This document shows, in pieces, positions 39,998 through 61,421 of a stretch of 64,000 nt of DNA. The position numbers were made by a program, and so were the translations under genes. Under the pieces are notes generated by a model. The model made no database searches, was not told the DNA's origin, and saw only the letters and a program-made list of their open reading frames with translations. The stretch's first letter is position 1, and each line of letters opens with the position of its first letter. Source of the DNA: Halorubrum trapanicum (GTDB taxonomy: Archaea > Halobacteriota > Halobacteria > Halobacteriales > Haloferacaceae). The stretch is taken from positions 744,001 to 808,000 of the forward strand of contig NZ_AP017569.1 of NCBI RefSeq assembly GCF_002355655.1. Direction: 5' to 3'.

Positions 39998-40027
39998 GCG
40001 ATGCAGCGAACTGCCGTTCAACGAAAC

Positions 40028-43000
40028 ATGTCTGTTCGGACCTCGATCGAGCCCCTCCAGTCTATCGAAAACGGTGGGGATGTCATCAGTTATCTGCTCG
40101 AATCAGACGGGATGAACTACGGGTCGTACGTCGAGGTTCCGAACGGCATCCAACGGAATCGAGGTCGAAACGACTGGTACGAGGCACATCTCGTCGACGC
40201 CGACGGCGACGGCGTTATCCGGTACATCGAACTCGAACGGTCAGACGATACGGCGTCGTTCAGCGACCTGAAGCAACAGCTGAAGCGTCACGGGAGTCCG
40301 ATCGACGAACTGTTTACCGTGATCGCATACCGGACCGGACCGGATCCGCTCACGAGTCCGGTGGACGACGGTCTCACATTCCTCTTCATCGACGAGCAGC
40401 TCTCGTCGGAAGACGTCGAAGTCACCTTCGACCTCAAGTACTTCACCGTCAAGCGGTTCGGCGTCGAGCCGGCGTATATCGACTTTCTCGGTGAGCTGTC
40501 CGTCGGGTCGGGGCAGGGCCGAACGAGCCTCGAACGAGACGTCGAGGACGTGTTCTCGATCCGAGAGATCACGCGGAGCTTCTACGAGGAGTTCGGGGAA
40601 ATCTTCCGGGGGACGCTACAGGACGCGATTCACGACCTCGAAGATCCGGACGAGAACCTCAACGCCTACACGCGCACGGTCGTCAACCGCGTGCTGTTCC
40701 TCATGTTCATCGAGGAGAAGGGATGGCTCGACGGCGACGTCGACTACGTCGAGAACCGGTACGAAGCCGCAAAGGGGGACCCGGACAAACACCTCTATCA
40801 CGACCTCTTCGAGCCGCTGTTCTTCGAGGCGCTCTCGAACACCGATACGACCGACGACGAGTTCCTCGGTCGGATTCCCTTCTTGAACGGCGGGCTCTTC
40901 GAGCGGAGCCACATCGAGGAGGACGTCACAATCGACGAGGCGTTCTTCGACGCGCTGTTGGATCCCGAGGAGGACGAGTCGGGCGAGCCGAAGGGGTTCC
41001 TCCGTCGGTACAAGATCTCGCTGCGGGAGTCGAATCCGAGCGAGCAGGAGCTGGTGGTCGACCCGGAGTTCATCGGGCGCATCTTCGAGATGTTCATGCA
41101 GGAGGACGAGCGCTCGGAGGTGGGCGCGTTCTACACGCCGAAGCCGATCACGGCGTACATGACGAAGAACGCGCTCAAACAGCACCTCTTACAGCAAACT
41201 GACCTCACCCACGATCAGGTCGTTTCGCTCGTGAGCGACCACGCGGCGCCGGAGTCGCTGACGCCGGCGCAGGCGGACGCGGTCGACGACGCGCTGCGGT
41301 CGGCGAGCGTGCTCGACCCGGCCGTGGGGAGCGGGGCGTTCATCATCGCGATGTTAGAGGAGCTCGTCGCCGTCGCGGAGGCGGTCGACGACGCTCGCGA
41401 CGACTCCGAGGCGACGGACCGGTTCGAGCGGAAAGAGGAGTTCATCGCGGACAACCTCTACGGGGTCGACATCGACGCCGGCGGGATCGAGCTGTGCAAG
41501 TTTCGGGTGTGGCTCCACCTGATGCAGGACCTGAACGTCTCCCACGAGGAGTTCCTTGACCGGAACGACGAGCTCGCTCTCCCCAACCTCGGATTCAAGT
41601 TCTTCGTCGGTAACAGCCTCGTCGGCGAGCACGACCCCACGCGAATCGACGTCGGGTCGTATCAGGAGACGCTCACCGGCGGCCTCGAATCGACGCTGGA
41701 CGAGATCCACGAGACGCGCAGCGAGTTCCTGACCGCCCACGGCGACGAGAAGGACGACCTCGGCGAGCGCCTCGAAGACCTGACCGGCCAGTTGGAGACC
41801 CAACTCGCGGTCAAGGGCGGCGACGACTGGATGAACGAGGTCGCCGAGGAGACGGGGTCGACGTTCGCGTGGACGTCGAAGATTCCGGAGGTCATCTTGG
41901 ACGGCGGCTTCGACATCGTGATCGGGAATCCACCGTACGAGGGGCAGTCACAGCAGGATTACCTGACAGAACTAGCAAACTTCTACGATTCGAAGTATGA
42001 CTTTTATAATAGAATAGATGGTATGCGTTATGACTTATATCAGAAATTCATAATTCGCGGATGGGAACTAACGCACGAAGATGGAGTCTTCTCTTACATA
42101 ACAAGTGACACTTTCCGGACAATTGGATCCAAGCAGCCGACGCGTGAGCTTCTCTTATCAAACCAGCTACAGGACTTGGTACTTGCAAATCCAGATACAT
42201 TTGATGCTTCAGTACGTCCTGCGATATTTACTCTCAAGAAAACGTCATCAGAAAGCGATTCGGTATTTGCATACATAGACGCATCTGAGACTGGTATAGA
42301 AAATTATCGAAGCTTAATAACTGGTATATTACCAGGCCTCGACTCGGTCAACTTCGAAGAGAAACCAACTGATCAACTACAATTAGATACATCTGCGCAT
42401 GGATATGCTGTCTCAAGTAAGGTATTCAATAACACATTAAAGAAATCGCTGTTTATACCTAACACAGCAAATATGAAGATATATTCTGACTATATGTCTA
42501 ATATAAATTCACTCGTCGAGGAGTGGAGAAATGAGATATATGATACAGATGCTCTCGAAGAAAGTCTGGATCAAATTCGTGACACCCACGTGGAGGAATT
42601 AGAACCAGGCGATACATCCATCCTAGGGTTGTTAACTTACGGTGGAGTTGGACTCGTAACCGGAAACAATGACGAATTTCTAGCATACGTTGATGGATGT
42701 AATTCCGCACAGAGAGTAAAAGAAAGAAATACAGATTCGTTCGATTATGTAGAGAAGAACGAAGAACAATACAAATGGATGAGTAGAGTAATCAAACCAA
42801 GTCATATTCTGAATCCTGAACAATTAACCAAGAATGAGCGTCTTAACGGCGTGGACTCTGGCACATATGGGGATAAAGTGTGGGTCCCATACGAGAAAGG
42901 ATCAGACAAGGAAGATATTTACTATAAAGAAATATCAATTTATCTTCGGTGGACGAAGAAGTCTCTCAAACGAATTAAGGAAAATCGTAATGGGCGGCTC

Positions 43001-43420
43001 CGTGATCCCAGATATTATTTCCAAGAAGGGCTCTTCGCCTCTCGCGGTGGTACTGGGGAGTATAAAATAAAGGCGCGTTACGTGAACAACTCTGTTGTTG
43101 ATACTAGCGGTGTTCTCATGCTCCCAATTGGTGATCAAATCTCTCCAAAATATCTTCTAGGGATCCTCAATTCAAATTTCTGTAAGTACTTGCTGGACAA
43201 CTTTATAAACCATACAGTTAATGTACAGGCAAGCGACATGCGGAATATTCCAATTCCTATACCTGCGAAAAACGAGAGAGATGAACTCGTTTCACTAGTT
43301 GATGACGCAATCCAAGCTAAGAAAGACGAAGGAAACAATTCCTTCAACGAGATTCAGGAGAAGATCGATAAACAAGTTCAGGACATCTTTGGAATTGAAG
43401 CAGAATACAACCCCATTTGA
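40028..43420 (+). CDS. Eco57I-type DNA adenine methylase with target-recognition domain
   Basis: A 1130-residue modification protein that would methylate adenine and read the DNA target. Its N-terminal region carries RVLFLMFIEEKGWLDGD near 230, then VGAFYTPKPITAYM. The SAM-binding motif DPAVGSGAFIIAM lies near 438, NLYGVDIDAGGIELCKF near 478, and the catalytic NPPYEG near 635. The C-terminal half (about 640-1130) is a TaqI/Eco57I-like recognition region. GC drops abruptly after NPPY and stays low to the end. The next gene starts at its stop codon (TGATG). The upstream ATG at 40001 is possible but lies before the predicted transcript start. Confidence 0.88.
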   Translation: MSVRTSIEPLQSIENGGDVISYLLESDGMNYGSYVEVPNGIQRNRGRNDWYEAHLVDADGDGVIRYIELERSDDTASFSDLKQQLKRHGSPIDELFTVIAYRTGPDPLTSPVDDGLTFLFIDEQLSSEDVEVTFDLKYFTVKRFGVEPAYIDFLGELSVGSGQGRTSLERDVEDVFSIREITRSFYEEFGEIFRGTLQDAIHDLEDPDENLNAYTRTVVNRVLFLMFIEEKGWLDGDVDYVENRYEAAKGDPDKHLYHDLFEPLFFEALSNTDTTDDEFLGRIPFLNGGLFERSHIEEDVTIDEAFFDALLDPEEDESGEPKGFLRRYKISLRESNPSEQELVVDPEFIGRIFEMFMQEDERSEVGAFYTPKPITAYMTKNALKQHLLQQTDLTHDQVVSLVSDHAAPESLTPAQADAVDDALRSASVLDPAVGSGAFIIAMLEELVAVAEAVDDARDDSEATDRFERKEEFIADNLYGVDIDAGGIELCKFRVWLHLMQDLNVSHEEFLDRNDELALPNLGFKFFVGNSLVGEHDPTRIDVGSYQETLTGGLESTLDEIHETRSEFLTAHGDEKDDLGERLEDLTGQLETQLAVKGGDDWMNEVAEETGSTFAWTSKIPEVILDGGFDIVIGNPPYEGQSQQDYLTELANFYDSKYDFYNRIDGMRYDLYQKFIIRGWELTHEDGVFSYITSDTFRTIGSKQPTRELLLSNQLQDLVLANPDTFDASVRPAIFTLKKTSSESDSVFAYIDASETGIENYRSLITGILPGLDSVNFEEKPTDQLQLDTSAHGYAVSSKVFNNTLKKSLFIPNTANMKIYSDYMSNINSLVEEWRNEIYDTDALEESLDQIRDTHVEELEPGDTSILGLLTYGGVGLVTGNNDEFLAYVDGCNSAQRVKERNTDSFDYVEKNEEQYKWMSRVIKPSHILNPEQLTKNERLNGVDSGTYGDKVWVPYEKGSDKEDIYYKEISIYLRWTKKSLKRIKENRNGRLRDPRYYFQEGLFASRGGTGEYKIKARYVNNSVVDTSGVLMLPIGDQISPKYLLGILNSNFCKYLLDNFINHTVNVQASDMRNIPIPIPAKNERDELVSLVDDAIQAKKDEGNNSFNEIQEKIDKQVQDIFGIEAEYNPI

Positions 43421-46400
43421 TGACTGAAGATCAGGGAAGCGTAGACGACATTGACTGGTCCGACTACTCCGACGTCCTCGATAATCGGAACTACGACGTT
43501 GCCGACCGGGCCAACATCCTCGCACGCGAGGCCGACACCGTCAAAATCGCCGTCGGCTACTTCTTCCTCGGCGGCTTCGATCTTTTAAAAGAGAACCTCC
43601 GCGGCGTCGACAACGTCGAAATCCTCGTCGGCACCGACACCGACCAGCGCACCATCGAGGAGTTGGAGCGCGGGTTCACCGACGACCTCGACGAGTACGA
43701 CAAAGCCGAGGCCGAAGACGGAATCGGCCGCCTCTACGAACTCATCCAAGAGGAGAAGGTCAACGTGCGCGTGTACGACGACGCGCGCTTCCACCCGAAA
43801 CTCTACCTGTTCAGGGACCCCGCCGGCTCGCCCGACCTCGGCCACGCGATCATCGGCTCCTCGAACCTCTCGCCCAGCGGCCTCCGGGGCAACGTCGAAC
43901 TCAACGTCGAGAAGAAGGACAACGCCACGATCCGGTATCTGGAAGAGTGGTTCGACGACATCTGGGGCGAGGCCAGCGAGTTCGACACCGACCTGATGAC
44001 CGCCGCCATCGAGCGCTCGCAGTTCGGCGATGACCTCCCCGACCTCGACGAGAGCGACGACGGAGACGACGAGGACGACACCGAGGTCGACGCCGTCGAG
44101 ACCATCTCGCCCTACGAGGCGACGAAGCGCTTCATCGTCGAGCAGTTCGATCGCGACGTCCGCGAGGGAACCCTCCTCGAAGACATTTCCGGCGACTACG
44201 AGGAACAGCTCACCGCCTTCCAGCAGGACGCGTTCCGCGCCGCGCGCCGCCCGCTGGAGAAGTACAACGGCGTCGTCCTCGCGGACAGCGTCGGCCTCGG
44301 CAAGTCGTACATCGGCGCGCCGCTCGTTCAGGACGCCACGACGTCCCGCGACGAGGTGCTGATCATCGCGCCGAACCGCCTCAAGCCGATGTGGAAGCGC
44401 GAACTCCTCGACGCCGAGACAGGCGAGTTCCCCACGACCGCCGATAAGACGTTTATCAGCTTCAACAAGCTCTCTCGGCTCTCCGAGAGTGAGATACAGC
44501 GGTTCCGGGGCGTGGACGTTGTGCTTGTCGACGAGGCGCACAACCTCCGGAACACGGGCACGCAGCGCTACGACAAGCTCCAGTCGATCGGGCGGCAGGG
44601 GAAGAAGTTCGTGATGCTCACCGCCACGCCGATCCACAACTCCGTCCGCGACGTGGACAACCTGATCAAGGTGTTCGCCGACGACGACGACTTCGACATC
44701 GAACTCGGCGGGATGTCGCCCAGCGAGATCTTCAAGGAGTACGACCGGCTCTCCGGCAACACCGAAGAGGACGAGGAGACGACGGGGGAGTCGCGCCGCC
44801 TCTCGGAACTCGAAACTCGGATCGAGTCGATAATGCGCGAAGTGATCATCTCGCGCGACCGGAAGTACATCCTCGACAACTACGACGACATCACGATCGG
44901 CGGCCGGCAGATCAGCGTCCCCGAGCGACAGCCCCGTCTGATAACTCCGGACGACCCGCGCCTCGACGAACTGTACAGCGACATCGTTGACGCTGTGATC
45001 GGCACGGACGAGTTCGAGGACTCCGGGCTCAACATCCCGTACGTCAGCGCGGACCGCTACGACGCAGACGGCGACGAGAAAGAGGAGCTGATCATCGAGT
45101 ATCAGAACGCGAGCATCCTGATGCTCATCAACCTCCTCAAGCGGCTTGAGAGCAGCCTCGCGGCCTTCGAGGACTCCGTCGACCGGCTCATGGAACGCGA
45201 GCGAATCACCCGGCACATCGCGACGGGCGACTTAGAGGACGCCGACGCTCGACATGACGCCGTCGAACAGATTCGGGACACGTTCGACGAGGACTTCACG
45301 CGAGACATCGACTTCGAGGACGTCGCCGAAGCGATCACGCAAGTGAGTCCCGACAAGCGCGAGGAGATCGTCGCGGACATCGAGGAGGACCTCGCCGTTC
45401 TCGAACGGATCAGAGAACAGGCCCGAGACGCACTCCAAACCGACGAGGGAGGCCGAACGAGGGACGCGAAAGCCGAGCGGCTTCGGTTACTGATCGATCG
45501 GGAACTCACCGGCGAGAAGGTGATCCTCTTCAGTCAGTACGTGCCGACGGTCACGCACCTCTTCGAGCAGGTCACCGGCGAAAATCCGGCCCACACGCAA
45601 GTTGCGACCATTGGCGAAGGGCCGGGGGGTCCGACCGTCGGCTATGTACACGGCGGAAGCGGGTACAGCGAGCGCATTGTCGAGCAGTTCGCACCGGAAG
45701 CACAAGACGCAGATGTCGGCGAAAACGAGGAGATAGACATCCTCCTCGCCACCGACGTGCTCGGCGTCGGACAGAACCTCCAGGACGCGCGCGTCCTCGT
45801 CAACTACGATCTACACTGGAATCCGATGAAGATGGAGCAGCGGATCGGCCGGATCGACCGCATCACGACGAGACACGACGCGCTCTGGATCTACAACTTC
45901 GCACCGACCGGCGATCTGCGGAGGCAGTTGGGACTTATCGAGCGGATCGAAGAGAAGATCCGAGATATCGCCAGTACATTCGGACACGCAGCACCCATTT
46001 TAGACAGTGCCGAAGAACAGGTACACAAGACGCTTATCACCTACGAGCGTCTCGAAGACGGTGGAGACGAGTTCGGTGACGAGCGGTTAGAAGGGATCGG
46101 GTCCAAGTACGACGATCTCAGAAACACGGTTCGATCGTTCTGTGAGGAAAACGAGGTCGGTATCGAGGAACTTCGAAAAACCCGAGAGATCGTCGATTCG
46201 CGCGCTGAGCCACAACACTTCACCACACCGGGGAAATCTAACGACTACGTCACACTCACACATCTCGAACACAGTAGTGGCCGCACAGAGTGGCGCACGA
46301 CCGTGTTCGATTCGGATCGACTACAACGAGCGATGATCGGCGGACAAGCGATATTCACCCAGTTCCCTCGACTCGAAACAGATGACGTACAGGTCTTTGA

Positions 46401-46821
46401 AACGATAGCGTCCTCGGATACGACTCGACACGCGATCCCGGAAGACGACCTCGACGAGCTGCGTGATTTCACCGAGGAATTAGGGAATCCAAGCACTTGG
46501 GAGAACGACATCCTAAGCCGGCAGACCGGTCAAAGCGATGTCATCACGAACATCAGGCAGCTATGCCGGAGCTTAGCGGAAAGCGATGAGGATATCAGCG
46601 ACAAAGCTGCTGAGATCGTGGACTTATTGCACGAACGCGAGATGAGCGATTGGGCCGAAAATCAGTTGCGAACGATCTACCGTCGCCGTCGTCGGTATGG
46701 AACCAATGGCACAGTTCAGCGACTCCATCATAAACTAACGGAAGAGATCGAACTCGTTGATCCCGAGACTGTGAGCGGAACCGACGTCGCGCTCGCAGGA
46801 CAGCTCTCCCCGGAAGAATAG
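43420..46821 (+). CDS. PLD-like nuclease fused to SNF2-type helicase
   Basis: This 1133-residue protein begins with a phospholipase-D-type domain (about 30-200): HPKLYLF near residue 126 and GSSNLSPSGL near 148 form an HKD-type active site. The helicase domain follows: LADSVGLGKSYIG (Walker A, about 290), VLVDEAHNLRNTG (motif II, about 370), VMLTATPIHNSVRD (motif III, about 405), then ILFSQYVPTVTHLF (about 706) and NYDLHWNPMKMEQRIGRIDR (motif VI, about 810). It probably cuts and translocates on unmodified DNA. It is translationally coupled to the methylase by a one-base overlap. The pairing is a restriction-type module; the complete family name is uncertain. Confidence 0.87.
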   Translation: MTEDQGSVDDIDWSDYSDVLDNRNYDVADRANILAREADTVKIAVGYFFLGGFDLLKENLRGVDNVEILVGTDTDQRTIEELERGFTDDLDEYDKAEAEDGIGRLYELIQEEKVNVRVYDDARFHPKLYLFRDPAGSPDLGHAIIGSSNLSPSGLRGNVELNVEKKDNATIRYLEEWFDDIWGEASEFDTDLMTAAIERSQFGDDLPDLDESDDGDDEDDTEVDAVETISPYEATKRFIVEQFDRDVREGTLLEDISGDYEEQLTAFQQDAFRAARRPLEKYNGVVLADSVGLGKSYIGAPLVQDATTSRDEVLIIAPNRLKPMWKRELLDAETGEFPTTADKTFISFNKLSRLSESEIQRFRGVDVVLVDEAHNLRNTGTQRYDKLQSIGRQGKKFVMLTATPIHNSVRDVDNLIKVFADDDDFDIELGGMSPSEIFKEYDRLSGNTEEDEETTGESRRLSELETRIESIMREVIISRDRKYILDNYDDITIGGRQISVPERQPRLITPDDPRLDELYSDIVDAVIGTDEFEDSGLNIPYVSADRYDADGDEKEELIIEYQNASILMLINLLKRLESSLAAFEDSVDRLMERERITRHIATGDLEDADARHDAVEQIRDTFDEDFTRDIDFEDVAEAITQVSPDKREEIVADIEEDLAVLERIREQARDALQTDEGGRTRDAKAERLRLLIDRELTGEKVILFSQYVPTVTHLFEQVTGENPAHTQVATIGEGPGGPTVGYVHGGSGYSERIVEQFAPEAQDADVGENEEIDILLATDVLGVGQNLQDARVLVNYDLHWNPMKMEQRIGRIDRITTRHDALWIYNFAPTGDLRRQLGLIERIEEKIRDIASTFGHAAPILDSAEEQVHKTLITYERLEDGGDEFGDERLEGIGSKYDDLRNTVRSFCEENEVGIEELRKTREIVDSRAEPQHFTTPGKSNDYVTLTHLEHSSGRTEWRTTVFDSDRLQRAMIGGQAIFTQFPRLETDDVQVFETIASSDTTRHAIPEDDLDELRDFTEELGNPSTWENDILSRQTGQSDVITNIRQLCRSLAESDEDISDKAAEIVDLLHEREMSDWAENQLRTIYRRRRRYGTNGTVQRLHHKLTEEIELVDPETVSGTDVALAGQLSPEE

Positions 46822-46823
46822 CC

Positions 46824-47384
46824 TGTACAGGTCACTACGAGGACGGCCCAGACCTCCCCGACGTCGGGCTCTTCCAGCCGAGCGAGTCGAACGTTCTCGA
46901 CGCGACGACCGAGGAGTACGAGAAGCTCCGCGTCAGCGACGTGCGCGCCGAGCGCGACGGGACGAGCGTCACGATCTCCGCGACGGCGCGGTACAAGCCG
47001 GAGGACGAAGACGCCCACGAGACCGACACGTACGGCTACACCGAGACGGAGTTCGTCGAGGCGTTCACGCTCGTCGACTGCTCGGAGGCGGAGGCCGCGC
47101 TCGTCGCCGCGTTCGTCCCGGTCGCGGTCGGCGACGAGATCGCGGGCTTCCGCGACAACGCCACCAAGACGAACTCGCTCGTCGACCGCCTGAAGGCGAT
47201 CACGCTGCCCGACCCCGACGACGTGGCCGACGACCTCCGGCGCTACGTCGAGACGAAGGCACGCGCCGACGAACTCGACGCGAAGATCGCGGAGACGGAC
47301 CGCCTCATCGACGAGATCGTCTACGAGCTCTACGACCTGACCGAAGAGGAGATCGAGATCGTCGAAGAGGCGGTCGCGGAGTAG
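46824..47384 (+). pseudogene. C-terminal remnant of an Eco57I-type methylase
   Basis: An open frame of about 187 codons without its own good start directly follows the helicase. The translation contains PDLPDVGLFQPSESNVL, later DNATKTNSLVDRLKAI, then AKIAETDRLIDEIVYELYDL and TEEEIEIVEE. The last part matches the usual C-terminal end of PglX/Eco57I-type methylases (ETDxLIDxIVYxLYxLTxEEI). It is GC-rich, unlike the AT-rich end of the intact methylase upstream. A methionine codon GTG at 46941 could restart translation, but the most likely reading is a decayed leftover of an older methylase at this locus. Confidence 0.7.
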
Positions 47385-58277: not shown

Positions 58278-61200
58278 TCACGACCCGCGTCCACGACGCC
58301 GAGCGAGCAGCGACGCGCCCATCACCGCCGCGAGCGACGCGACGGCGTCGAAGCCGGGGAGGTCGTACGCGGTCGATCGGATCGGCGCCTCGTCGTACCC
58401 GAGGTCGCTCGCGTCGGCCTCGTCCGCGGACCGATCGCTCGCCGCGGACGGATCTCCCGGTTCGGCAGAGTCGGGAGACGCGGTTGACGTCCCGCCGTCG
58501 CCCTCACTCCCGGCGTCGTCGCCGGGCCGCCCGTCGGTCGGACGGGACCCGTCCGCCGCGGCACCGTTCGATCCGCGTTCCGGCCCGCCGGTACCGACGA
58601 GCTCCGGTGGCCCCGCAGACGGCGGGATCGCCGTGTCCCCCGGAGCGATCGTGATACCCATCCCCGGACGAGGCCCCGATCGGTCGGCGTCCGACGCGGG
58701 CGGCCCTTCGGGCAAACCCGAACCGCCCGCGTCGGTGACGTTACCGGTGCCGGCCGAGCCGGCGGGACCGACGGCCCCTCCGGATCCGCTCGGACCGCCG
58801 GTCGAACCGCCACCGGTCGAATCGCCGCTGGCGGCCGAACCGCCGCCGGCGATCGAACCGGAACCGTCCACCGCCCCGGGTGAGCCCGACACCTCCGAAT
58901 CGATGGACGAGCCCGCTTCGGTCGAGTCGTCGTCGGTCGCCGCGTCCGTACCCCCGTTCGTCGGATCGGCGGCGCCGTAGGTCAGATCAGTCGTCGCGCG
59001 GTGCCGGTCGTCGGCCGCGGTCCGACGCAGTCGGTCGTCGTCGACCCGGAACCCGGCCTCGAACGTCGCGCCGGGTTCGGGGAGCGTCTCGGTACCGAAC
59101 GCGCGCTCGCCGTCGGCGACGAGGTACAGCCCCTCTCGGTCGAGGTGGACCGCGGATTCGTTCGGTGTTCGACCGAGCGCGTCGCCGTCGGTGGACTCGT
59201 TGCCGTCGTCCGTCTCCGTCGGCGCCACTCCGAACGAGAGGCCGTCGAGGCGGTCGAGGTCCGCACCTCGCTCCAGCGACGCGTTCGCGGCCGCCGGCAG
59301 GCCCGTCAGCCCGGTCGCGTTCACGGCGTACACGACGGTGTCGTTCGCGGTCGCGGTCGTCGCGGGCGTGAGCGTTCCGTCGGCGATCGCCCCTCTGACC
59401 GCGGTCGCGTTCCCGAAACCGCCGGGAGCGACCGCCCGAGTGGTGTACGCGGTCAAGTTGCCCGTCGAGCGAGGTTCAACGGTGACCGTCGCGGTGTCGT
59501 TGGCGACCTCGGTGCCGTGCTCCGACCGCAGCGTGAGGTCGTACGTCCCGGGCGAGAGCGGAGCGGTATCTCCAGTGACCGATTCGACGCCGATTCCGGA
59601 CCCGGTCGTGACGAACTCCGATGGGGATTCGGGCGAGACGTACGTGTTGACCGTGACTGGTGTCGGACCCGTTTCGGTGGTTGTCAGTTCGAGTGTTGTA
59701 GTGGTATTATTACTCGTATTAGAGAATATCAGCTCCAAGTCTGGTACACGATGAGACAGAGAGATTCTGATATGATTTCCAGACATAGCTTGGTTTGAGA
59801 TATCGCTTAGGGAGATTTCTTTTCTCTCGTCTCCAATAATCTGGAAATTTTCTGAGTTTCCCCTTCTTGAGTGAATATAGTATGTACCGGAAGAGAGCAG
59901 TGACGTATTATACCCGACTTGATCTGAATTATTTAATCGAGTTCCCACAGACACTACGCGAGTCGTGTTGTCCTCGTTTAGTCTGTGTAACTCAACTCCT
60001 TCCGCATTTAGAGAAGAATTAAAATTGACCATTTGACCAGAGTATACAGGTTTTTCCAGTGATTGATTGCGCTTAATTTGAACACCCTCTGAGCTGGATC
60101 CATTTGTGCGGATAGAGTCTATTGAGATCACGCCAGCATCTGCGACACCATCAGAAACAAAGTGCTTATTTAGATCAGAGTTTCGTAATAGTTCAGAATC
60201 TTTTGGAGAAATCCAATCTCCAACGCTATGTCCACGTGCTAGCTGTATGGCCGCCGCATAGCGATTACTTCGGAGAATACCACTTTTATCACTTGTAGTA
60301 TTAAAATAGAGTTTAACATCTTTATTCCATCCAGTTAGAACTCTTGAATTAGCAACAACCTCGTTATGTCGGATATATCTAGTTGAATTGACAGGATATA
60401 ATGAAACCAAAAATGGGGTTTCGTCCGCAATTGTATCAGAAACTTTAGCGCTAGGGACTGTGATACTATCTGATTGTGGGTTTTCATATGAAAGATTAGC
60501 AAACTCAATACCAGCATTTACTATCCGTCCTTTATCTGCTGACAACGCTGAATCGGTCATGTTAGTAGGAAGAAAGTCTCCAATACCGTGATCAGAAGTC
60601 CCGGAAGTAGAGTTCGCAATCAGAAATCCTCTAACGTCACCCCCCGGGTAGGATGTACCAACAGAAACGGTTTCTTTTGTCTTAAGCACACTTTTGGGGA
60701 GTTGTCGGATTCCAATTATTTCATTGTTATCTCCACGTGTAATGAAAAGAGTTGAGTTTGTGTTGCCGCTGAGATCGCTAACCGTTATGCCGATAGTTGT
60801 TCGAATGTCTCTGTGTAGTTGAGGAGAACCAGTTGCTTGATCATGAATCTCAATTGAACCATCAATTATATTGAATGAATCTGTACTCTTTGCCTCCGTG
60901 GCTTCTGTAGAAGAATAATCAGTGCCATTTGTAATAGTGATATTATAATCCAAATTGATTGATTTCTGAGCATTACTTGTATCTATTCCGGATATTTGAG
61001 CGGAGTCAATCTGTATTGAGCGGGGTGATCCATTTGGACGTATAGTTGCTGTTAGAAGCTCTCTATTCGCAGATTCTACCAGGGTAGTATTAATTACAGA
61101 CCCATTTTGAATATCTATAATGGACAATGAGGCTGAGGATGTGTTGACCCCTCTTGACTCAATACTACCTAAATTCACATATAATCTGATTTTGCTGGCG

Positions 61201-61421
61201 GTGTTTGTCTGGTTTGAGAGTAATATTTCAATATTGCTGATATTTTGTCTAGATTTGTCTATTCGAATAGGGTTTGGGTTACCAGTTTCATTTAAAATAG
61301 GTTTGTAATCGTGAGTTTGAGCTCCGACTGTGCTCACTCCCAATAATAGAACAACAGCACCCACCACGACACAGATCACGATACCGGCCCACAGCCATCG
61401 AAGCGATCGCGTCTGGATCAT
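58278..61421 (-). CDS. large PGF-CTERM surface glycoprotein (BGTF-like), mosaic gene
   Basis: A 1047-residue exported protein. A signal peptide (about 1-35) is followed by a long Asn/Ser/Thr-rich region (about 36-570) with many NxS/T sites, including a BGTF-like module (YSGQMVNFNSSLNAEGVELH to LLSSGTYYIHSRRG). From about residue 570 the composition changes to the usual acidic, Gly/Asp-rich haloarchaeal type, with a strand-rich domain (about 600-830) and a Ser/Gly-rich stalk (about 840-1000). The end carries a PGF-CTERM signal (LPGFDAVASLAAVMGAS then LLARRR). The N-terminal half is AT-rich, the C-terminal half GC-rich. It is likely a lipid-anchored cell-surface protein. Confidence 0.8.
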   Translation of the reverse strand: MIQTRSLRWLWAGIVICVVVGAVVLLLGVSTVGAQTHDYKPILNETGNPNPIRIDKSRQNISNIEILLSNQTNTASKIRLYVNLGSIESRGVNTSSASLSIIDIQNGSVINTTLVESANRELLTATIRPNGSPRSIQIDSAQISGIDTSNAQKSINLDYNITITNGTDYSSTEATEAKSTDSFNIIDGSIEIHDQATGSPQLHRDIRTTIGITVSDLSGNTNSTLFITRGDNNEIIGIRQLPKSVLKTKETVSVGTSYPGGDVRGFLIANSTSGTSDHGIGDFLPTNMTDSALSADKGRIVNAGIEFANLSYENPQSDSITVPSAKVSDTIADETPFLVSLYPVNSTRYIRHNEVVANSRVLTGWNKDVKLYFNTTSDKSGILRSNRYAAAIQLARGHSVGDWISPKDSELLRNSDLNKHFVSDGVADAGVISIDSIRTNGSSSEGVQIKRNQSLEKPVYSGQMVNFNSSLNAEGVELHRLNEDNTTRVVSVGTRLNNSDQVGYNTSLLSSGTYYIHSRRGNSENFQIIGDERKEISLSDISNQAMSGNHIRISLSHRVPDLELIFSNTSNNTTTTLELTTTETGPTPVTVNTYVSPESPSEFVTTGSGIGVESVTGDTAPLSPGTYDLTLRSEHGTEVANDTATVTVEPRSTGNLTAYTTRAVAPGGFGNATAVRGAIADGTLTPATTATANDTVVYAVNATGLTGLPAAANASLERGADLDRLDGLSFGVAPTETDDGNESTDGDALGRTPNESAVHLDREGLYLVADGERAFGTETLPEPGATFEAGFRVDDDRLRRTAADDRHRATTDLTYGAADPTNGGTDAATDDDSTEAGSSIDSEVSGSPGAVDGSGSIAGGGSAASGDSTGGGSTGGPSGSGGAVGPAGSAGTGNVTDAGGSGLPEGPPASDADRSGPRPGMGITIAPGDTAIPPSAGPPELVGTGGPERGSNGAAADGSRPTDGRPGDDAGSEGDGGTSTASPDSAEPGDPSAASDRSADEADASDLGYDEAPIRSTAYDLPGFDAVASLAAVMGASLLARRRGRGS

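What the first reader, a model, noticed from the sequence alone, without database searches (positions are those of the whole stretch)
41935..43420. Recognition half of the methylase is abruptly AT-rich
Seen directly: GC is high up to the NPPY motif at about 41935, then long AT-rich stretches appear to the stop codon, after which the helicase gene is GC-rich again. The break falls at the border between catalytic and target-recognition regions. Inference: the recognition domain was swapped in from a lower-GC source, changing the DNA target while keeping the catalytic part.
Basis: partly seen in the sequence, partly recalled or inferred. Interest (0 to 1): 0.6.

Follow-up and report, generated by a model that had tools for sequence, protein, structure and literature searches.

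The report
Swapped DNA-recognition half of archaeal methylase
In a salt-loving archaeon (genus Halorubrum), a DNA-methylating defence enzyme has had its DNA-recognising half replaced by one from a lower-GC relative, leaving the flanking enzyme core and partner helicase in place; this probably changed which DNA sequence it marks, by a kind of exchange already known in bacteria.

Summary
GC falls from 0.62 to 0.40 and GC3 from 0.86 to 0.38 inside one intact 1,139-codon methyltransferase (MTase) gene, at 41957-41966. It recovers at about 43457, just inside the partner gene, a PLD-nuclease/Snf2-helicase fusion.

The swap interpretation is supported by phylogeny. Before motif IV the protein is 92% identical to the H. 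californiense orthologue at the same chromosomal place, and 76% to that of G384 from another family. Over the recognition domain this reverses: 36% and 71%. The helicase follows the N-half. AU tests reject each tree on the other half. The exchanged block runs from about 41929-41963 to 43445-43473.

Two corrections. The 5' junction lies at or just after NPPY, inside the catalytic domain, so motif V-VIII sequence moved too. Relatives show a milder recognition-half AT bias (28 of 30 homologues, mean GC3 change -0.11), so composition alone would be weak evidence; the window's -0.48 is the most extreme.

Other relatives have also exchanged recognition domains (95% N-half, 47% recognition domain). 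This is a well-resolved archaeal case of a known process, target-recognition-domain exchange by recombination at conserved motifs. A changed DNA target is likely but untested.

The parts
40001..41938 (+). MTase N-terminal half and catalytic core through motif IV (SAM motif DPAVGSG at residue 439, NPPY at 643); resident Halorubrum lineage
   Evidence: 92% identical to H. californiense; GC3 0.86; Eco57I / N6_Mtase / MmeI_Mtase domains
41929..41963 (+). 5' recombination junction, at or just after the NPPY codons; composition break 41957-41966
   Evidence: maxchi2 410 versus permutation maximum 18 (2000 permutations), break 41938/41941; two-break fit range 41929-41963; composition change point
41964..42250 (+). 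Rest of the catalytic domain after motif IV (about residues 655-750), carried in with the imported block
   Evidence: 85% to L003, 68% to H. californiense; AU rejects the N-half tree here (p 0.001)
42251..43420 (+). Target recognition half (residues 751-1139; TaqI_C-like 979-1085), AT-rich, imported
   Evidence: GC 0.40, GC3 0.38, 71% to L003, 36% to H. californiense
43445..43473 (+). 3' recombination junction, at the first conserved patch (DWSxYSDVLDNR) of the downstream helicase
   Evidence: two-break fit, 2-lnL range 43445-43473; composition recovers at 43457
43420..46821 (+). Partner gene: N-terminal PLD (HKD-type) nuclease plus Snf2-type helicase, starting by a TGATG overlap with the MTase stop; resident lineage
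   Evidence: PLDc_2, Helicase_C, SNF2, PADLOC 'HKD+Snf2' 281.7 bits; 92.5% to H. californiense over residues 1-840; HPKLYLF...GSSN, Walker A, DEAH and motif VI present

Best explanation
The gene is a mosaic made by homologous recombination. A two-gene restriction-like defence unit (m6A methyltransferase with a C-terminal recognition domain, plus a PLD-nuclease/Snf2-helicase) already sat at this chromosomal site in the common ancestor of this Halorubrum and H. californiense. Later a DNA segment of about 1.5 kb from a lower-GC haloarchaeal relative of the same system (recognition type as in L003/G384) recombined in, crossing over within the conserved DNA around the NPPY motif on one side and the conserved start of the helicase gene on the other. 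The catalytic core up to motif IV and the nuclease-helicase were kept; the post-motif-IV part of the catalytic domain and the whole recognition domain were replaced. Shown: mosaic structure, junctions, which relatives each part resembles, and composition. Inferred: that the DNA target changed, that the window's genome rather than H. californiense is the main recipient, the direction and age of transfer, and that the unit works as a defence system.
For: Composition break and its size. Reversed identity pattern: win-L004 92/68/36% and win-L003 76/85/71% for N / mid / TRD. AU tests: N tree on C half p 3e-5, C tree on N half p 2.7e-4, helicase rejects the C-type trees (p below 1e-48) and accepts the N tree (p 0.46). 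Recombination test on 1,067 informative sites, chi2 410 versus permutation maximum 18; two-break model gains 293 lnL units over no break. N-half DNA (88.9%) and helicase DNA (86.4%) diverge from H. californiense about as much as flanking chromosome (mostly 85-92%), while most of the block (42137-43452) gives no aligned blastn match, so the flanks are vertical and only the block is exchanged. The block lacks the GC3 of about 0.9 that both Halorubrum N-halves show, so it is recent in this lineage. No second copy in the same genome, so it came from outside.
Against: The donor itself is not found; the best sampled recognition domain is 71% identical, so the source is an unsampled relative. Only seven full-length members of this family (window included) were found. 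The 30 homologues checked show a general mild GC drop after motif IV, so part of the composition signal is not specific to this event. H. californiense may also have changed its recognition domain, so the number of events is unresolved.
Confidence: 0.9

Rival explanations
1. No exchange: the recognition half evolves fast under diversifying selection and is AT-rich for functional reasons.
For: 28 of 30 haloarchaeal homologues have lower GC3 after motif IV, mean -0.11; recognition domains are the most divergent part in all pairs.
Against: Fast evolution lowers identity to everyone equally. It cannot make the window closest to L003 in one half and closest to H. californiense in the other. The well-aligned post-motif-IV stretch alone rejects the N tree. 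Third-position GC of 0.38 is not simply an amino-acid effect. L004 and L006 have recognition halves at GC3 0.78 and 0.73.
Confidence: 0.03
2. The exchange happened in the H. californiense lineage: the window keeps the ancestral recognition half shared with L003, and H. californiense replaced its own.
For: win-L003 recognition identity (71%) is not far from their N-half identity (76%); H. californiense recognition groups with L005/L033.
Against: The window's N-half has GC3 0.86 but its recognition half 0.38; a block inherited alongside the N-half since the split should have drifted with it. The mid region is closer to L003 (85%) than the N-half is (76%), opposite to what shared vertical descent gives. 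H. californiense's recognition half (GC3 0.78) looks more native.
Confidence: 0.1
3. Assembly or binning chimera.
For: None seen; reads were not available.
Against: One intact reading frame across both junctions, alignable to relatives over its whole length, on a 2.8-Mb contig of a 99.6% complete, 0.2% contaminated genome.
Confidence: 0.02

Closest known systems
Target-recognition-domain movement between methyltransferase genes (described for Helicobacter pylori Type I S and Type III Mod genes; PMC3983042, PMC3077401)
   Same: Recognition domain moves while the catalytic part stays; [quoted passage not shown] Here the 5' junction sits at such a motif (NPPY).
   Different: Archaeal; an Eco57I/TaqI_C-like MTase with C-terminal TRD, not Type I S or Type III Mod; the 3' junction lies in the next gene (helicase); exchange between haloarchaeal families; target motifs not measured.
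HKD-nuclease + Snf2 helicase effectors, as in Type-2 BREX-related systems (PMC12839542)
   Same: Helicase with N-terminal PLD/HKD-type nuclease encoded with an N6-adenine MTase.
   Different: No DUF499 ATPase anywhere in this genome; the MTase has a C-terminal TRD, whereas the paper says BR systems have the TRD nested in the MTase core; no other gene is conserved beside the pair in all seven loci.
BREX PglX (PMC11341690)
   Same: Gamma-type m6A MTase domain followed by C-terminal recognition part; weak family hits.
   Different: 134 bits against a 500-bit cut-off for BREX-1 PglX.
M.BseCI (PDB 7qw5)
   Same: Only sequence-level PDB relative; matches from NPPY through about 100 residues of catalytic domain, plus a weak C-terminal match.
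   Different: 585-residue chain without the long N-terminal extension.

Membership tests
TRD exchange by homologous recombination (domain movement between orthologues) | Catalytic and recognition parts have conflicting phylogenies | tested here: met
   AU tests; identity matrices
TRD exchange by homologous recombination (domain movement between orthologues) | Junctions lie in sequence conserved between donor and recipient | tested here: met
   5' at or just after NPPY, 3' at DWSxYSDVLDNR of the helicase
TRD exchange by homologous recombination (domain movement between orthologues) | DNA target differs after exchange | not testable with these tools
   Needs methylome data
Eco57I-like gamma N6-adenine DNA methyltransferase | SAM motif, NPPY motif, Eco57I and TaqI_C-type domains | tested here: met
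   Eco57I 5.6e-26 over its cut-off; DPAVGSG and NPPY present; TaqI_C 22.6 bits, just under its 26.5 cut-off
Type IIG restriction enzyme (nuclease fused to MTase) | N-terminal endonuclease domain in the same chain | tested here: inconclusive
   No nuclease domain found by Pfam in residues 1-180; two loose pattern hits; structure model too poor to judge (mean pLDDT 45)
DUF499-centred BREX-related system (Type-2 BR) | DUF499 ATPase component | tested here: not met
   No PF04465 match in the whole genome
BREX type 1 | PglX MTase above family cut-off | tested here: not met
   134 bits versus 500
DISARM class 1 | DrmD helicase above family cut-off | tested here: not met
   155 bits versus 610

The most novel reading that the evidence does not exclude
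Haloarchaeal Eco57I-like methylases draw recognition halves continually from a lower-GC gene pool, faster than they adapt to host composition. The almost universal GC3 drop after motif IV (28 of 30 homologues) would then be the footprint of this traffic, with the window's gene the freshest example.
Probability: 0.25. Interest if true: 0.6.

Novelty: new member of a known kind. Interest (0 to 1): 0.4.

Why it matters
It is a cleanly resolved natural chimera of an archaeal methylase: both junctions are placed to within about 30 bases, at conserved sequence, with an orthologue carrying a different recognition half at the same chromosomal site in a sister species. It gives a natural design for recombining recognition domains, and predicts that two closely related strains differ in methylation motif because of one 1.5-kb exchange. 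It also warns that GC shifts inside such genes are partly a general trend and need phylogenetic support.

Tried and rejected
Structure prediction of the MTase from seven sequences gave mean pLDDT 45 and was not used. Viral contigs searched with the recognition half and with the N-half gave no relative; the family alignment gave one 25% match covering only residues 123-709. Phage and plasmid records held no close donor; the only full-length plasmid hit was Natrinema versiforme at 54%. The single genome-contig scan returned only H. californiense. An intragenomic silent copy as donor was rejected: no second copy in the genome. The downstream 3' remnant (46824-47384) was considered as a discarded recognition end of this gene and rejected: it is 94% identical to the tail of a different, 1,387-codon gene elsewhere in the genome. 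A third conserved operon gene was looked for and not found. The founding paper on TRD movement between non-orthologous genes is not held, so its claim is cited through PMC3983042.

Full report
What is there. The window lies in a 3.08-Mb haloarchaeal genome of the genus Halorubrum. At 40001-43420 (+) is one intact reading frame of 1,139 codons with Eco57I (5.6e-26), N6_Mtase and MmeI_Mtase matches, a sub-threshold TaqI_C-like match at residues 979-1085, the SAM motif DPAVGSG at residue 439 and NPPY at 643. Its stop overlaps the start of a 1,133-codon gene (43420-46821) with an N-terminal PLD domain and an Snf2-type helicase; PADLOC names the architecture HKD+Snf2.

The observation. A change-point fit places the break at 41958 (all bases) or 41966 (third positions), GC 0.623 to 0.400, GC3 0.864 to 0.381; with both genes the AT-rich block is 41957-43457. 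No other candidate ORF scanned in the window has so large a GC3 step.

Relatives. Searches of genus, family, two other families and a sample of the class gave six full-length relatives: L004 (H. californiense, also L032), L003, L005, L006 (on a Natrinema versiforme plasmid), L007 and L033. All have the helicase directly downstream.

The mosaic. In residues 1-640 the window is 91.9% identical to L004 and 76.3% to L003; in 655-750, 67.7% and 85.4%; in 751-1139, 36.0% and 70.7%. Maximum-likelihood trees give (window, L004) for the N-half and the helicase, and (window, L003) for the C-half; AU tests reject the N tree on the C half (p 3.2e-5), the C tree on the N half (p 2.7e-4) and all C-type trees on the helicase. 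At 1,067 sites separating L003 from L004 the best break is 41938/41941, chi2 410 against at most 18 in 2,000 permutations. A two-break model over both genes gives 41929-41963 and 43445-43473, with 78% L003-like sites inside and 19% outside.

Why the block is the newcomer. The surrounding chromosome is collinear with H. californiense from about 32.5 to 55.4 kb, with 80-92% DNA identity in the main segments; the N-half (88.9%) and helicase (86.4%) fit that range, while 42137-43452 gives no aligned match. Both Halorubrum N-halves have GC3 of 0.86-0.91, but the window's recognition half has 0.38, near L003's 0.46. This points to import into the window's lineage, though an additional change in H. 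californiense is not excluded.

Function versus composition. So a mild AT bias is a general tendency and composition alone is weak; the phylogeny decides. Homologues were chosen as best hits and are related, so they are not independent.

Where the junction falls. It is not at the catalytic/recognition border. The Eco57I domain match continues to residue 723, and the only PDB relative, M.BseCI, aligns from NPPY through roughly 100 further residues. The swap therefore carries the post-motif-IV part of the catalytic domain, plus the first 13-15 codons of the helicase.

Repeated exchange. L005 and L033 are 94.7% identical in the N-half and 47.5% in the recognition domain; L003 and L005, 89.0% and 44.8%. 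Recognition-domain replacement is thus probably recurrent in this family, though the breakpoints in those pairs look less sharp and fast divergence is harder to exclude there.

How it probably works (inference). The MTase marks self DNA at a motif set by its C-terminal domain; the PLD-helicase attacks unmarked DNA. Exchanging the recognition block changes the motif while keeping core and effector. How the effector would follow the new motif (through the MTase's own recognition domain, or by sensing unmethylated sites) is not known. This resembles TRD movement described in H. [quoted passage not shown] The pair resembles the MTase plus HKD-helicase of Type-2 BREX-related systems (PMC12839542), but DUF499 is absent from the genome, so it is not filed there.

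Noticed in passing
46824-47384 (+), similarity continuing to 47607: A 186-residue open fragment starting 3 bases after the helicase stop is 94% identical to the last 184 residues of a 1,387-codon Eco57I-like gene elsewhere in the same genome (G000:C1:1970824-1971375); DNA identity 90% over 774 bases, running past the stop. It is absent from H. californiense.
   Followed up: partly
L060 (10.4-14.8 kb), L061 (5.0-7.4 kb), L059, L062: In several Halorubrum genomes two or three partial copies of the same 3' tail lie within a few kb of each other, as if alternative 3' ends of a type IIG-like gene were stored side by side; possible silent recognition cassettes.
   Followed up: partly
58278-61421 (-): A second gene with an intragenic composition break: a 1,047-codon secreted-looking protein, N-terminal part at about 40% GC and C-terminal part at about 70%, break near 59.7 kb.
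   Followed up: no
45958-46821: The last quarter of the helicase has a milder GC3 drop (about 0.85 to 0.58) and lower identity to H. californiense (83% versus 92%), but is still closest to it.
   Followed up: partly
L003-L031, L033: 28 of 30 haloarchaeal Eco57I-like methylases have lower GC3 after motif IV than before it; the cause is not explained.
   Followed up: partly
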